Positions 5,165 to 16,602 of a stretch of DNA of 20,565 nucleotides are shown here, one piece after another. The translations under genes and the position numbers were made by a program. The notes under the pieces are model-generated. The model was not told the origin of the DNA, searched no databases, and saw only the letters and a list, made by a program, of their open reading frames with translations. The stretch is from a virus: IMG/VR virus record IMGVR_UViG_3300031669_000294, positions 1 to 20,565 of that record, one strand, 5' to 3'. Positions within the stretch are counted from its first letter, which is position 1; each line of letters opens with the position of its first letter.

Positions 5165-5213
5165 AAAAAAAAGAGCGGTAGAGAAACCACGACACGAAAT
5201 TTCTCTACCGCTC
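5165..5213 (-). terminator. Strong Rho-independent terminator
   Basis: A perfect 14-bp stem (GAGCGGTAGAGAAA at 5173-5186 with its complement at 5200-5213) and a 13-base loop. On the minus strand it is followed by eight T residues (5165-5172). It ends the early-type transcript carrying the 100-aa and 48-aa genes and the multi-hairpin RNA, and insulates it from the late operon. Confidence 0.93.
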
Positions 5214-5448
5214 AGAAGAAGTGGATGTGTGCCACCCAAAAAACAAACATCCACCAAACATCACTCAACTCATCTCATGTTGAGCTTACTACTCACCTAG
5301 TCATTGGGGGATTTGACTAGGAGGGTGAACCTCCCTTCCCCAAGGAAGGTTCAAATGACCTAGCAGAAAATCCATTTTTGATGGTTACTAGGTCGGGCAA
5401 ACGGTATACTTCGATTTAAATGAGATACATGCCCATATCACGTACCGT
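5214..5448 (-). ncRNA. Multi-hairpin structured RNA, unknown class
   Basis: No protein gene fits here. The stretch is a string of six perfect or near-perfect hairpins ahead of the terminator. Arms: 5221-5228/5247-5254 (8 bp), 5264-5269/5279-5284 (6 bp), 5296-5303/5314-5321 (8 bp), 5326-5337/5342-5353 (12 bp with one G-U, four-base loop), 5357-5363/5388-5394 (7 bp, with an inner CCAT/ATGG), and 5401-5406/5443-5448 (6 bp). The loops of the third and fourth hairpins are complementary over six bases (TTGGGG with CCCCAA), allowing a kissing interaction. The region is clearly more GC-rich than its surroundings. It may be a stable 3'-UTR, a processed small RNA or a sponge/decoy. No tRNA or known riboswitch pattern was seen. 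Confidence 0.68.
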
Positions 5449-5594
5449 TAATCTTTAGTGGTAAAAATATCTTGTTGTACACCACTAGAGAAAAGATCTT
5501 GTTGCTGTCCAGTATCAAAAATTTCATCTGGAGGAACATTTGTCAATTCATCTGGATCAATAACAAATTCATCAATATCAAAAAAATCATCCAT
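5448..5594 (-). CDS. Acidic small protein, 48 aa
   Basis: A short ORF read directly from sequence, with AAGGAG 8 bases before the ATG and a UAA stop. It begins MDDFFDIDEFVIDPDEL and ends QQDIFTTKD. It is very acidic with interspersed Phe and two QQD(L/I)F motifs near the C-terminus (GQQQDLF and GVQQDIF), which look like a short repeated peptide. No family recognised. Small acidic early phage proteins are often host-factor inhibitors or DNA mimics, but that is only a suggestion. It has its own candidate promoter (5639-5667). Its first eight codons closely match the 9-codon leader ORF at 6007-6036. Confidence 0.72.
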   Translation of the reverse strand: MDDFFDIDEFVIDPDELTNVPPDEIFDTGQQQDLFSSGVQQDIFTTKD

Positions 5595-5677: not shown

Positions 5678-5980
5678 TCATAAATATTGTTTTTTTACTT
5701 TACGATTCTTCCATGATTTGCGAGTACGAACATCACCTCTTTGATAATCATTATATGGATTAGGAAGATTTAAAGGACTTCTTTTCAATCTGCCGTAACC
5801 CTCACTAGCAAACCATTGACGTTTTTCATTTGAACTTTTCGGTCTTTTACACCAGCAATAAAAATTACCTCTTTTATATCCTATTGCAGGAACAGGATCA
5901 ATACGAAAACGATAGAATATAAATTTTCCTGAAAACCTTGTATGCCATACTCTTTCAAAAAGTTTTTCTCCGTAATTCAT
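5678..5980 (-). CDS. Basic Trp/Tyr/Arg-rich protein of unknown function, 100 aa
   Basis: No family recognised. It is strongly basic and aromatic: FYRFRIDPVPAIGYKRGNF, CWCKRPKSSNEKRQW, then GRLKRSPLNLPNPYNDYQRG and a Lys/Arg tail (TRKSWKNRKVKKQ). A nucleic-acid-binding role is plausible, but no fold is visible; a CWC pair is present without a second CxxC. The ATG follows AGGAGG, but that site is buried in a 16-bp hairpin (5981-6020), so translation is probably controlled. It is the first full gene behind promoter P1 and likely early. The gene ends just before the -35 block of promoter P2. Confidence 0.75.
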   Translation of the reverse strand: MNYGEKLFERVWHTRFSGKFIFYRFRIDPVPAIGYKRGNFYCWCKRPKSSNEKRQWFASEGYGRLKRSPLNLPNPYNDYQRGDVRTRKSWKNRKVKKQYL

Positions 5981-6020
5981 TTGATAACCTCCTAAGTTTA
6001 ATTAACTTAGTGGTTATCAA
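5981..6020 (-). promoter_or_regulatory. RBS-sequestering hairpin of the 100-aa gene
   Basis: On the minus strand, arms TTGATAACC (6012-6020) and GGTTATCAA (5981-5989) give 9 bp. After a small internal mismatch, CTAAGTT (6004-6010) pairs with AACTTAG (5992-5998) for 7 bp around a five-base loop. The AGGAGG ribosome binding site lies inside the right arm and the ATG is the first base outside the stem. The leader ORF stop codon lies in the left arm, so a translating ribosome would melt the structure. Confidence 0.85.
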
Positions 6021-6036
6021 TATCAAAATCATGCAT
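6007..6036 (-). CDS. Leader ORF, 9 aa (MHDFDIDNH), overlapping the hairpin
   Basis: A tiny ORF with an excellent ribosome binding site (AAAGGAG, 7 bases before the ATG) directly behind promoter P1. Its stop codon lies inside the left arm of the hairpin that hides the next gene's ribosome binding site. This is the arrangement of translational attenuation or coupling leaders. Its codons match the start of the 48-aa gene almost base for base: ATG-CATGATTTT-GATATTGAT against ATG-GATGATTTT-TTT-GATATTGAT. It is therefore probably a truncated duplicate of that gene's 5' end, now usable as a regulatory leader. The peptide itself may have no function. Confidence 0.6.
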   Translation of the reverse strand: MHDFDIDNH

Positions 6037-6102
6037 TTTAATCTCCTTTAATCTATGGGGTTGCTTTGCATCCCAAAGGTCGAATATCGTCTTTTTTAAT
6101 TA
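6037..6102 (-). promoter_or_regulatory. 5' leader of the P1 transcript
   Basis: About 65 bases from the predicted start of P1 to the leader ORF. It contains a small hairpin, CTTTG/CAAAG (6064-6068/6074-6078), whose loop CCC could pair with GGGG at 6057-6060. This could form a small pseudoknot, but it fits no riboswitch class I know. Nothing else was seen. Confidence 0.35.
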
Positions 6103-6109
6103 TAATACC

Positions 6110-6138
6110 ATCATATCACAACTATATACAGTTGTCAA
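6110..6138 (-). promoter_or_regulatory. sigma70-type promoter P1 with operator-like dyad
   Basis: On the minus strand, -35 TTGACA (6133-6138, perfect), 17-bp spacer, -10 TATGAT (6110-6115, five of six). The spacer holds an inverted repeat, ACAACT-GTATAT-AGTTGT (6117-6134), which starts inside the -35 and would suit a dimeric repressor. It reads into the leader ORF and the 100-aa gene. It lies at the stop codon of the glycosyltransferase gene. Confidence 0.85.
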
Positions 6139-13830: not shown

Positions 13831-16602
13831 TTAAATTTCACATGAACCAGTTCCACAAGACATCTCTTCTGCATCGGTATGTACTTTTCCTTCTTCGATA
13901 TATCTTTTAACCTCCTTTTTAGATTTGATAGGAACAAGTATCTGCTCTTCACGACTACCATCAACGTAAAGAGTTACCCCTTTTAAGTCTCTAATATATT
14001 CAAGAAGTAAATGACTTAACTGCTCTGGTTTAAAGCCGCTAGGAGTATTAATAGTCTTAGAAATAGCTCCATCGGTATACTTCTGAATTATAACCTGTGT
14101 TTCAAAATGATCCTCTGGTTTGAGATCTGTAGTGTCAACAAACCAGTCTGGAGTAGCTTCATTTGCTTCGATAATCTTCTGATAGATAGGATGAACATAC
14201 GCTCTATCTCCTACCTCATCATGTCTCATAAAAGCCTTGAATACCAGCGGCTCCGCACTACTAGTTACTTCTGGAAGCAATGAGATAGTTCCGGTAGGTG
14301 CGATAGCCATAAGAGATACATTTCTAATACCATATTTCTTTATATCCAATCTCATATTAGCTGGAAGAGATCTAACAAAATGAGCTTTACTATACATTTT
14401 TGTATCGAACTTCGGAAAAGCTCCCTTCTCTTCTGCAATTTTAATACTAGCTTCATAGGCATAATTTCTAATATTTTTAACTAACTTCTCAATTTCGTCT
14501 ATTGCTTCTTGAGAACCATATCTAAGTTTCTTTGCAAACAAGTAATCACCTAATCCCATGAACCCCAATCCTATACGTCTACCATCAAAGGCTTTACGCT
14601 GAATCTCTGGAATGGTAATGGGATATCTGTTTACTTGAATTATATTATCTAGAAACCTTACTGCATTATAAACTGTTTCCTGCATAAGTCTCCAGTTTGT
14701 ATTTTTTTGAGCAATGAATTTAGGTAGGACTAACGAACCAAGACAGCATACACCATGCGCTGGCAAGGGAACTTCACCACAGTTTTTTGAATAAATCCAA
14801 TTACTTAGAGCAAATGAGTTAGTAGTTGATACAGTACAACAATATACTTTTTCATCAATACCATCTTCTTCTATTGAAACTATCATATTATATTTTTCTT
14901 TAACTAGTAGTTTCATTTCTCTATCAGAAAAATCTTTTAATCTGTTAAATTTAACTAGTTTAGAAAGTTCAATAGAATATCTTTGTGGTATATTTAATCT
15001 ATAAGATTTTTTACAATTATATTCTCCATATCCATCATTGAAATCTTTTTTTTCTGCTTCTTTTCCCAAAGATAATTTTGATTGAACACCGATAGTTTTC
15101 AAAAGTAACTGAATATCAAAGAGCATTTTCTTACTATTTGCCCATACTTGATATCCATATCCACTTATTTTTGAATCTCTAATAGAACCATCAGCATCAA
15201 AATATCCAGCTAAAAATTCACATTTAGATTTTAAATTCCATTGAAATATTTCTTTAGGTAATTTACTTTTATATTCATGACACCATTTATGAAGTTCATT
15301 TTTTCTAGCAGTTAATCCAGTAAGATTTTTTCTGTCATTACCTTCTTCATAATTAAATTCCAATACTTCTATTGCATTAGTATTAATTTCTTCTATATTA
15401 ATTTCACTAGCAGATTTTATTAGATTTTCTTCACAACAATATTTTGGTTCATATAATCTAAGCAATGGTTCATCATTTCTTTTAATAGAACCATCTCCCA
15501 ATAAAAACCCTTTAATATAAGATCCATTTTCTTCTATGTTACCATGAACTAATGGAGCATTAGAAAAAGATAATATATCTCCTTCTATAAGTTCTCTTGC
15601 TTCCTTTGAATTTGAATTATCTTGAAGATGAAATTTATGATATGGGGTAACTCTTAATTCAGAACCATCATATAAAGTTATTTTTAACATTTTCTGATTT
15701 TCACCAGTAACACGAAAATTATCTATAGATACCCAATTATTTCCATCCCAAACATCTACTTCCTTACCTACTAAATCTTGAATTTCAAAATGTCCTTGTT
15801 TAGTTAAAACCTTGATATCATTAGAAAAACAGGGATTTGTAGAAAGGATGGAATCAAAATAGTAAGAATTATTATTTCTAAGATTATCCCAATTGATAAG
15901 ACCTGGCTCCGCACATTTTACCATATTATCAAGAACCAGATCCCAAATTTCTCTAGCTCTAACTTCTCTCCAAACTTTATGATGCCATTTTAAATTCCAT
16001 TTATCATCTGCTTCTACGGCATCTATAAATTCTTCCATTACTCCAACTGAAATATTAAAGCAATTCAATTCACCTTCTACTAGTTTAGTGTTTATAAACT
16101 TGAAGATATCAGGATGAGACACAAGCATTAACGCTAAACAAGCGGCTCTCCTTGCTCCACCTGTCTTAATACAATTAGCTCCTGCATTAGCCCACTTTAG
16201 AAAAGACAAAGGCCCACTTGACTCCCCTCCTTTCTGTACAATTTGAGCATCCTCGGGTCTAAGGAAAGAAGCGTTACATCCAACTCCTCCACCTTCTGAC
16301 CATAAGATACCACAATTCTTTTGGAAGTCTCCAATTTCTTCTATAGAATCCTCTAGTGGTTCTACATAACAATTAAACAAAGTACCTCTAGGTCTTCCCA
16401 TGTTCCTAAGTATTCTACCTCCAGGAAGAAACAACATATCATTGATCATTTTAGAAAATTTATCTTCCCATTTACTTCTATCTACAGGCTCTACACTAGC
16501 TCCTCCACGTCCTACTCTTGTAGCTAAACCCCCCCAATCTTCTTGTTCGTTATAAGCATATCTGCTTTTAAATATAATTTCAGCTTTACTATTTAATATC
16601 AT
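13831..16602 (-). CDS. nrdJ: Class II ribonucleotide reductase with an in-frame intein, 923 aa (573 aa after splicing)
   Basis: Makes deoxynucleotides for phage DNA. Extein signs: LFNCYVEP (Cys78), GGGVGCNASFLRP, NPCGE split by the intein (Asn256-Pro257, then Cys608-Gly-Glu610), HGVCCLGSLVL (Cys619), APTGTISLLPEVTS and TDGAISKTINTPSG, the last typical of the adenosylcobalamin class, plus the C-terminal redox pair CGTGSCEI. There is no nrdB-like small subunit nearby, which also suggests class II (B12-dependent). The spliced length (573) is compact for the family. The start (MILNSKAEIIFKSRY) overlaps the upstream gene by ATGA. Splicing is required for activity because the intein sits directly before the presumed thiyl-radical cysteine. 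The class assignment is from motifs, not from a tree. Confidence 0.9.
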   Translation of the reverse strand: MILNSKAEIIFKSRYAYNEQEDWGGLATRVGRGGASVEPVDRSKWEDKFSKMINDMLFLPGGRILRNMGRPRGTLFNCYVEPLEDSIEEIGDFQKNCGILWSEGGGVGCNASFLRPEDAQIVQKGGESSGPLSFLKWANAGANCIKTGGARRAACLALMLVSHPDIFKFINTKLVEGELNCFNISVGVMEEFIDAVEADDKWNLKWHHKVWREVRAREIWDLVLDNMVKCAEPGLINWDNLRNNNSYYFDSILSTNPCFSNDIKVLTKQGHFEIQDLVGKEVDVWDGNNWVSIDNFRVTGENQKMLKITLYDGSELRVTPYHKFHLQDNSNSKEARELIEGDILSFSNAPLVHGNIEENGSYIKGFLLGDGSIKRNDEPLLRLYEPKYCCEENLIKSASEINIEEINTNAIEVLEFNYEEGNDRKNLTGLTARKNELHKWCHEYKSKLPKEIFQWNLKSKCEFLAGYFDADGSIRDSKISGYGYQVWANSKKMLFDIQLLLKTIGVQSKLSLGKEAEKKDFNDGYGEYNCKKSYRLNIPQRYSIELSKLVKFNRLKDFSDREMKLLVKEKYNMIVSIEEDGIDEKVYCCTVSTTNSFALSNWIYSKNCGEVPLPAHGVCCLGSLVLPKFIAQKNTNWRLMQETVYNAVRFLDNIIQVNRYPITIPEIQRKAFDGRRIGLGFMGLGDYLFAKKLRYGSQEAIDEIEKLVKNIRNYAYEASIKIAEEKGAFPKFDTKMYSKAHFVRSLPANMRLDIKKYGIRNVSLMAIAPTGTISLLPEVTSSAEPLVFKAFMRHDEVGDRAYVHPIYQKIIEANEATPDWFVDTTDLKPEDHFETQVIIQKYTDGAISKTINTPSGFKPEQLSHLLLEYIRDLKGVTLYVDGSREEQILVPIKSKKEVKRYIEEGKVHTDAEEMSCGTGSCEI
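14782..15831 (-). other. Intein with LAGLIDADG homing endonuclease (residues 258-607 of the reductase)
   Basis: Self-splicing element. It begins CFSNDIKVLTKQG (Cys258, block A), has the T-x-x-H motif of block B (VTPYHKF, Thr319 and His322), two LAGLIDADG helices (IKGFLLGDG with Asp370; LAGYFDADG with Asp471) and the C-terminal block NSFALSNWIYSKN ending in Asn607, with Cys608 as the +1 residue. The residue before the last Asn is Lys, not the usual His. Both endonuclease motifs look intact, so the intein is probably still mobile. It lies exactly between NP and CGE of the NPCGE motif. Confidence 0.93.

What the first reader, a model, noticed from the sequence alone, without database searches (positions are those of the whole stretch)
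5981..6036. Nine-codon leader ORF ends inside a hairpin that hides the next gene's RBS
The AGGAGG of the 100-aa gene lies in a 16-bp hairpin with the ATG just outside. A leader ORF with its own strong RBS runs into the left arm and stops there, so its ribosome should open the hairpin. This is the layout of translational attenuation or coupling (as in erm/cat leaders), here on a phage gene of unknown function. Expression would depend on translation of the leader, so the unit could sense ribosome state.
Basis: partly seen in the sequence, partly recalled or inferred. Interest (0 to 1): 0.78.

Follow-up and report, generated by a model that had tools for sequence, protein, structure and literature searches.

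The report
Phage mini-peptide that unlocks next gene
A group of uncultured phages puts a nine-codon mini-gene in front of an RNA hairpin that hides the start of a small gene, so ribosomes probably have to read the mini-gene first; the hairpin and four of the nine amino acids (F-D-x-D-x-H) are preserved in distant relatives, which suggests a real and possibly signal-responsive translational switch.

Summary
On the minus strand, leader ORF 6036-6007 (MHDFDIDNH*) has its own SD and stops inside the left arm of a 9+7-bp hairpin (6020-5981) whose right arm holds AGGAGG of the 100-aa gene; the ATG lies just outside. The hairpin far exceeds chance (z -6.7), and this is the most buried SD-bearing start among 108 examined. 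Relatives keep both parts. Eight distinct sequences have a 9- or 10-codon leader with its stop in the left arm and the SD in the right; stem pairs change in compensated fashion, including stop TAA to TAG with the partner U to C. In seven of eight the peptide is M-x(2-3)-F-D-x-D-x-H-stop: first and second positions of those four codons never vary, while neighbouring codons vary freely. In one phage the unit precedes an unrelated 66-aa gene. Best explanation: translational coupling, in which a ribosome on the last leader codons melts the hairpin and the downstream gene is then initiated. Conserved FDxDxH suggests that the nascent peptide tunes this by pausing, drop-off or slow termination, as in mgtQ or cat/cmlA leaders; that half is inference. 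No member was found in phage isolates. Function of the controlled proteins is unknown.

The parts
6110..6138 (-). sigma-70-like promoter TTGACA-17-TATGAT (extended -10) just upstream of the unit; TTGACA also stands upstream in relatives
   Evidence: (11/12 consensus matches; promoter-like hits in the region as a whole are not above shuffles)
6053..6077 (-). optional 5'-UTR hairpin element TTTGGGATGCAAAGCAACCCCATAG; present also in L004, L029 and (without the leader unit) L030, absent in L003
6043..6049 (-). Shine-Dalgarno of the leader ORF (AAAGGAG)
6007..6036 (-). leader ORF MHDFDIDNH*, nine codons, stop TAA at 6009-6007 inside the left arm
   Evidence: conserved FDxDxH* in relatives
6004..6020 (-). 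left arm of the hairpin (TTGATAACC A CTAAGTT), overlapping leader codons 6-9 and the stop
5981..5998 (-). right arm of the hairpin (AACTTAG GA GGTTATCAA) holding the SD AGGAGG (5993-5988) of the gene
5678..5980 (-). controlled gene: basic 100-aa protein of unknown function, accessory (absent in L030, replaced by a 66-aa gene in L035)
5448..5594 (-). next gene: acidic 48-aa protein, conserved at the locus even where the leader unit is missing; not shown to be part of the switch

Best explanation
A translational-coupling switch on a phage mRNA. In untranslated mRNA the hairpin buries the SD of the small gene. A ribosome starting at the strong leader SD melts the left arm once it reaches leader codon 4-5 and holds it open until it terminates at the stop inside the arm. 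Its leading edge then lies 2-8 nt short of the gene's SD, so the SD is exposed; on termination the same ribosome (or its 30S) reinitiates 25-32 nt downstream, or a new one loads before the hairpin refolds. The small protein is therefore made only in proportion to leader translation. The conserved nascent peptide FDxDxH* most likely sets how long the ribosome dwells on the last codons. Shown here: sequence anatomy, excess stability, compensated stem changes, conservation of leader, stop position and FDxDxH. Computed only: melting by the ribosome. Inferred: dependence of expression on the leader, the reinitiation route, the peptide's role and any signal.
For: Same architecture in 8 distinct sequences with the downstream protein diverged to 56-60% identity. 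Compensatory changes at seven stem positions in seven sequences, two more readable in L102. A model built without L102 finds its unit at E 1e-4. F, D, D and H codons: 0 of 120 pairwise differences at 1st/2nd positions but 13 of 60 at third positions; the other codons 60/120 and 32/60. Opening cost 9.6-16 kcal/mol in free mRNA versus about 2-6 with a ribosome at the first Asp or later (L025 is weak throughout). Gene start is the most buried of 108. One unit per record. Unit kept before an unrelated gene in L035. RNA-unfolding coupling by short upstream ORFs is a recognised mechanism (PMC12548453).
Against: No expression data. Few independent lineages (8 distinct sequences; some contigs are identical). 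Stem changes are partly with a shifted register, so only one pair scores as doubly changed on a plain MAFFT alignment. L003 has a weakened outer stem and L025 a weak hairpin (-7.6), and L025's 'leader' is the in-frame end of a longer ORF. A stop-to-start gap of 25-32 nt is long for efficient reinitiation (PMC11602170).
Confidence: 0.8

Rival explanations
1. Nascent-peptide attenuator: FDxDxH actively pauses or destabilises the ribosome, or slows termination, in response to a condition (Mg2+, ribosome integrity, release factor, a drug), and only the prolonged pause opens the hairpin well enough; coupling alone gives little product. (An extension of the best explanation rather than its opposite.)
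For: F, D, D, H are invariant in seven of eight leaders while x residues are I/Y/N/T and N/I/T. F-D codons lie outside the stem in the hairpin folds and the A of His CAY is unpaired in win/L003/L004, so pairing alone does not explain them. The hairpin is essentially fully open once the first Asp is in the P site. D-x-D within the first ten residues is the kind of motif linked to pausing or drop-off (PMC11282234); the 8-aa mgtQ with D2 and E5 unmasks the mgtB RBS (PMC8092293); cmlA has a 9-aa leader (PMC8876359).
Against: No inducer, no alternative hairpin found, L025 lacks the second Asp and the His, and di-acidic motifs alone are not sufficient for pausing (PMC11282234). Unusual amino-acid conservation could also reflect binding of RNA by a protein.
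Confidence: 0.4
2. T4-type temporal hairpin: the SD is hidden only in long early transcripts and freed in late transcripts starting from a late promoter inside the left arm; the leader ORF is incidental.
For: RBS-hiding hairpins of this type are established for I-TevI, soc, e, segB and mobE (PMC2988022), and the window is from a T4-like phage (tail protein, RNA ligase, primase).
Against: No late-promoter-like TATAAATA in the left arm or loop of the units inspected (sequence read directly); a sigma-70-like promoter lies about 80 nt upstream; codon-wise conservation of a leader with its own SD is unexplained.
Confidence: 0.07
3. The conserved leader RNA is a protein-binding or cleavage site (translational repressor, RNase III-like processing) and the ORF is a by-product.
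For: TTTGAT is invariant at the nucleotide level in all leaders aligned; the gene products are basic.
Against: Third positions of D7 and H9 vary while the residues do not; start, SD, frame, stop position and length are all kept; the downstream protein is exchanged in L035, so autoregulation by it does not explain the conservation.
Confidence: 0.08
4. The leader encodes a functional micropeptide (for example mimicking the acidic N-terminus MDDFFDIDEF of the neighbouring 48-aa protein), and the hairpin only adjusts expression ratios.
For: The leader shares FDID with the start of the 48-aa protein in the window.
Against: The shared stretch weakens in relatives (FDYD, FDND, FDTD); the unit occurs in L025 and L102 where no 48-aa gene was seen nearby; stop codon position is tied to the hairpin.
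Confidence: 0.05

Closest known systems
mgtQ-mgtB (Salmonella mgtCBRU; PMC8092293)
   Same: Very short acidic leader (8 aa, D2 and E5) whose translation frees an RBS held in an inhibitory stem-loop
   Different: mgtQ acts through alternative stem-loops 1:2/3:4 versus 2:3; here a single hairpin directly overlaps the end and stop of the leader, in phages, before unrelated small genes; acidic-residue effect untested here
cat / cmlA and ermC translation attenuators (PMC8876359, PMC4191407)
   Same: Nine-residue leader with its own SD (cmlA), hairpin masking the SD of the next gene, ribosome position on the leader decides
   Different: No resistance gene, no known inducing drug, no second (alternative) hairpin found, leader peptide sequence not shown to be related
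tap-repA of plasmid R1 (leader peptide Tap; Blomberg et al. 1992, cited in PMC5883639)
   Same: Translation of a leader peptide is needed for translation of the following gene
   Different: R1 adds an antisense RNA (CopA); plasmid replication gene; no antisense RNA was looked for systematically here
T4-family RBS-hiding hairpins (I-TevI, soc, e, segB, mobE; PMC2988022)
   Same: Phage hairpin sequestering a strong SD about 8 nt from the ATG
   Different: Those are relieved by a late promoter inside the hairpin; here a conserved leader ORF ends in the hairpin and no such promoter is visible
Integron attI1 ORF-11 (PMC8876359)
   Same: Short ORF that boosts whichever gene follows by coupling, with interchangeable downstream genes
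   Different: ORF-11 serves cassettes lacking an RBS and its amino acids matter little; here the gene has a strong but masked SD and the peptide is conserved

Membership tests
Translational coupling by RNA unfolding | Co-directional upstream ORF with its own start signals close to the downstream start | tested here: met
   Leader with SD, stop-to-start gap 25-32 nt in seven sequences, same layout in L102
Translational coupling by RNA unfolding | Inhibitory structure over the downstream RBS, overlapping the region that the upstream ribosome occupies | tested here: met
   Fold, compensatory changes, opening-cost scan
Translational coupling by RNA unfolding | Downstream expression falls when upstream translation is blocked | not testable with these tools
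   Needs reporter fusions
erm/cat-type translation attenuator | Leader ORF plus hairpin masking the next gene's SD | tested here: met
erm/cat-type translation attenuator | Downstream gene is a resistance determinant | tested here: not met
   No Pfam, NCBIfam or PHROG family for the 100-aa or 66-aa protein (a weak PHROG match of unknown function for the L025 homologue)
erm/cat-type translation attenuator | Drug-dependent stall at a defined leader codon | not testable with these tools
   Peptide-level conservation is compatible
Acidic-leader (mgtQ/IRD) switch | Acidic residues early in the leader, conserved | tested here: met
   D-x-D conserved in seven of eight leaders; L025 has one Asp
Acidic-leader (mgtQ/IRD) switch | Alternative stem-loops exchanged on leader translation | tested here: inconclusive
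   No alternative partner for the left arm is predicted in the 181-nt fold, but alternatives were not searched for exhaustively
T4-type late-promoter hairpin | Late promoter within the hairpin so that late mRNA lacks the left arm | tested here: not met
   No TATAAATA-like motif in the arms or loops of the aligned units (by reading); the late promoter consensus of this phage group is unknown
Known Rfam cis-regulatory family | Match above gathering score | tested here: not met
   0 matches in the window; only chance-level matches at E<=10

The most novel reading that the evidence does not exclude
A phage-encoded nascent-peptide sensor: the FDxDxH* leader is an undescribed arrest or destabilising peptide that reads a state of the infected cell's translation machinery (for example Mg2+, ribosome integrity or release-factor activity) and switches on interchangeable small phage genes placed behind it.
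Probability: 0.3. Interest if true: 0.8.

Novelty: new variant of a known kind. Interest (0 to 1): 0.58.

Why it matters
Leader peptides of nine codons are below the limit of gene callers, and literature searches here found no described conserved leader-peptide switch in tailed phages (absence from this library is weak evidence). If it works as proposed, it shows a phage gating accessory genes by ongoing translation at the single-codon scale, and gives a compact natural element (about 60 nt) with built-in covariation data and a defined peptide motif whose role in pausing or termination can be tested at once in a purified translation system.

Tried and rejected
Rfam at gathering and at E<=10: nothing. 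Exact or gapped DNA patterns for the hairpin and the leader in IMG/VR: apart from the known relatives only chance matches inside genes. Phage isolates: no homologue of the 100-aa protein; two marginal hits to faecal phage contigs showed no leader. AlphaFold2 of the 100-aa protein: mean pLDDT 43, so no fold search was made. RNAalifold on the MAFFT alignment gave one doubly changed pair because the two subtypes pair in different registers; supplemented by a per-sequence pair table. The palindrome ACAACTGTATATAGTTGT in the promoter spacer is not conserved in L003/L004 and was dropped as an operator. Blocking-by-ribosome via pairing probability was misleading; opening free energy used instead. Similarity of the leader to the start of the 48-aa gene was considered as a duplication but weakens in relatives. 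Whether a stalled ribosome at the stop would admit a second ribosome: the geometry (edge 2-8 nt from the SD) argues against it, which favours reinitiation or a pause at the first Asp.

Full report
What is there. The window is a whole IMG/VR record, a 20.6-kb fragment of a T4-like phage with nearly all long ORFs on the minus strand. On that strand a sigma-70-like promoter TTGACA-17-TATGAT (6138-6110) is followed by a short 5' UTR, a leader ORF with SD AAAGGAG (6049-6043), ATG 6036 and stop TAA 6009-6007 (MHDFDIDNH*), and then the gene ATG at 5980. The bases 6020-5981 fold into a 9+7-bp hairpin (-18.0 kcal/mol, z -6.7, 0/200 shuffles). The stop codon is in the left arm, AGGAGG in the right arm, the gene ATG just outside.

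More than chance. A scan for the full layout finds one strong case (-17.5 kcal/mol) in the window and none at -14 or better in 60 shuffled windows. Of 108 SD-bearing ORF starts in the window and five relatives, the gene start in question is the hardest to open (16.2 kcal/mol; median 4.3), and the starts behind the unit in relatives are also among the top nine.

Relatives. Homologues of the 100-aa protein were found in IMG/VR at 100% (L002), 90% (L003), 80% (L004), 68% (L029), 59% (L031-L034, mutually identical in this region) and 56% (L025), and at 60% in L102, a contig binned with an archaeal MAG but carrying a tRNA cluster like L025 and probably a mis-binned phage. Each has a leader of nine codons (ten in L029) ending about 25-32 nt before the gene: MHDFDIDNH, MNKFDIDNH, MHDFDIDNH, MPYKFDIDIH, MLKFDYDIH, MSNYIFDIF, MTVFDTDTH. 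In L035 the same leader, MNKFDNDIH with a TAG stop, and the same hairpin stand at the same genomic place but before a 66-aa protein with no detectable relation to the 100-aa family. In L030 leader and gene are both missing while the flanking genes remain. In L025 the leader is in frame with a longer upstream ORF and its hairpin is weak, so it is the least certain member.

Evidence for the stem. Pairing each left-arm base with its partner in each sequence shows changes on both sides with pairing kept at seven positions, for example stop TAA to TAG with the partner U to C (L035), His CAC/CAT with G/A, Asp GAT/GAC with A/G, and stop+5 T-A/A-T. L102 adds inner-stem pairs T-A and A-T where the others have G-C and T-A. 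A plain alignment shows only one such pair because the two subtypes differ by two bases between stem and SD. A covariance model built without L102 finds its unit at E = 1e-4. Hairpin z-scores are -5.5 to -7.4 in window, L004, L029, L031, L035 and -2.7 to -3.6 in L003, L025, L102.

Evidence for translation of the leader. Among six distinct leaders with the motif, the F, D, D and H codons show 0 of 120 pairwise differences at first and second positions and 13 of 60 at third positions, while the other four codons differ at 60 of 120 and 32 of 60. Start, SD, reading length and position of the stop within the stem are kept. In the hairpin folds the F-D codons lie outside the stem and the middle A of the His codon is unpaired in three sequences, so pairing alone does not account for the conserved residues.

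How it probably works. With a ribosome footprint P-14 to P+15 on the leader, the cost of opening the gene's SD-to-ATG falls from 9.6-16 kcal/mol to about 2-6 as soon as the first Asp codon (codon 5) is in the P site and stays there to the stop (L025 is low throughout). With the last codon in the P site the leading edge lies 2-8 nt before the SD. The hairpin is therefore melted but a second ribosome would have little room, which points to termination-reinitiation by the same ribosome, or to loading right after release. A pause around the first Asp would leave more room. These are computations, not measurements. Both coupling models are described in PMC12548453.

Is there a sensor? The conserved D-x-D within ten residues of the start resembles motifs linked to ribosome pausing or drop-off (PMC11282234) and the acidic 8-aa leader mgtQ, whose translation unmasks the mgtB RBS (PMC8092293). 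The length of the leader and the masked SD also recall cmlA and cat leaders (PMC8876359). No alternative hairpin, inducer or resistance gene was found, so membership in the erm/cat kind is not claimed. I give about 0.4 to a peptide-driven attenuator as an addition to coupling.

Known kinds. T4 phages hide SDs in hairpins, but release them by a late promoter in the arm (PMC2988022); no such promoter is visible here. tap-repA and integron ORF-11 are functional parallels. The combination of a conserved minimal leader peptide, a stop-containing hairpin and exchangeable downstream genes in phages is best called a new variant of translational coupling/attenuation.

Limits.

Noticed in passing
window 5170-5440 (-): About 250 nt of non-coding, structured sequence after the 48-aa gene, ending in a strong terminator; several helices, 11 pairs with compensated changes in four sequences, no Rfam match: a candidate phage non-coding RNA. 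Conserved opening GCCCGACCTAG in most relatives.
   Followed up: partly
window 5448-5594 (-): Acidic 48-aa protein kept at the locus in all relatives with it, with a tandem QDLFSSG..QDIF motif that resembles sliding-clamp-binding pentapeptides (resemblance recalled, not tested); starts MDDFFDIDEF, like the leader's FDID.
   Followed up: partly
window 6053-6077 (-): 5'-UTR hairpin element TTTGGGRTG-NNN-GCANCCCCATAG present in window, L004, L029 and in L030 (where leader and gene are absent), missing in L003.
   Followed up: partly
L083 around 8044 of the minus strand (record of L025): Another RBS-hiding hairpin (-12.7 kcal/mol) whose loop side holds TATATAAATA, like the T4 late-promoter hairpins of soc and e.
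   Followed up: no
window 13831-16602 (-): Ribonucleotide reductase ORF of 923 aa that appears to contain an intein (CFSNDIKVLTKQGHFEIQDL ... SNWIYSKNC).
   Followed up: no
L102 (JAEHCK010000038.1): Contig binned as a Thermoplasmata MAG carries a tRNA cluster, the 100-aa homologue and the leader unit; probably a mis-binned phage contig.
   Followed up: partly
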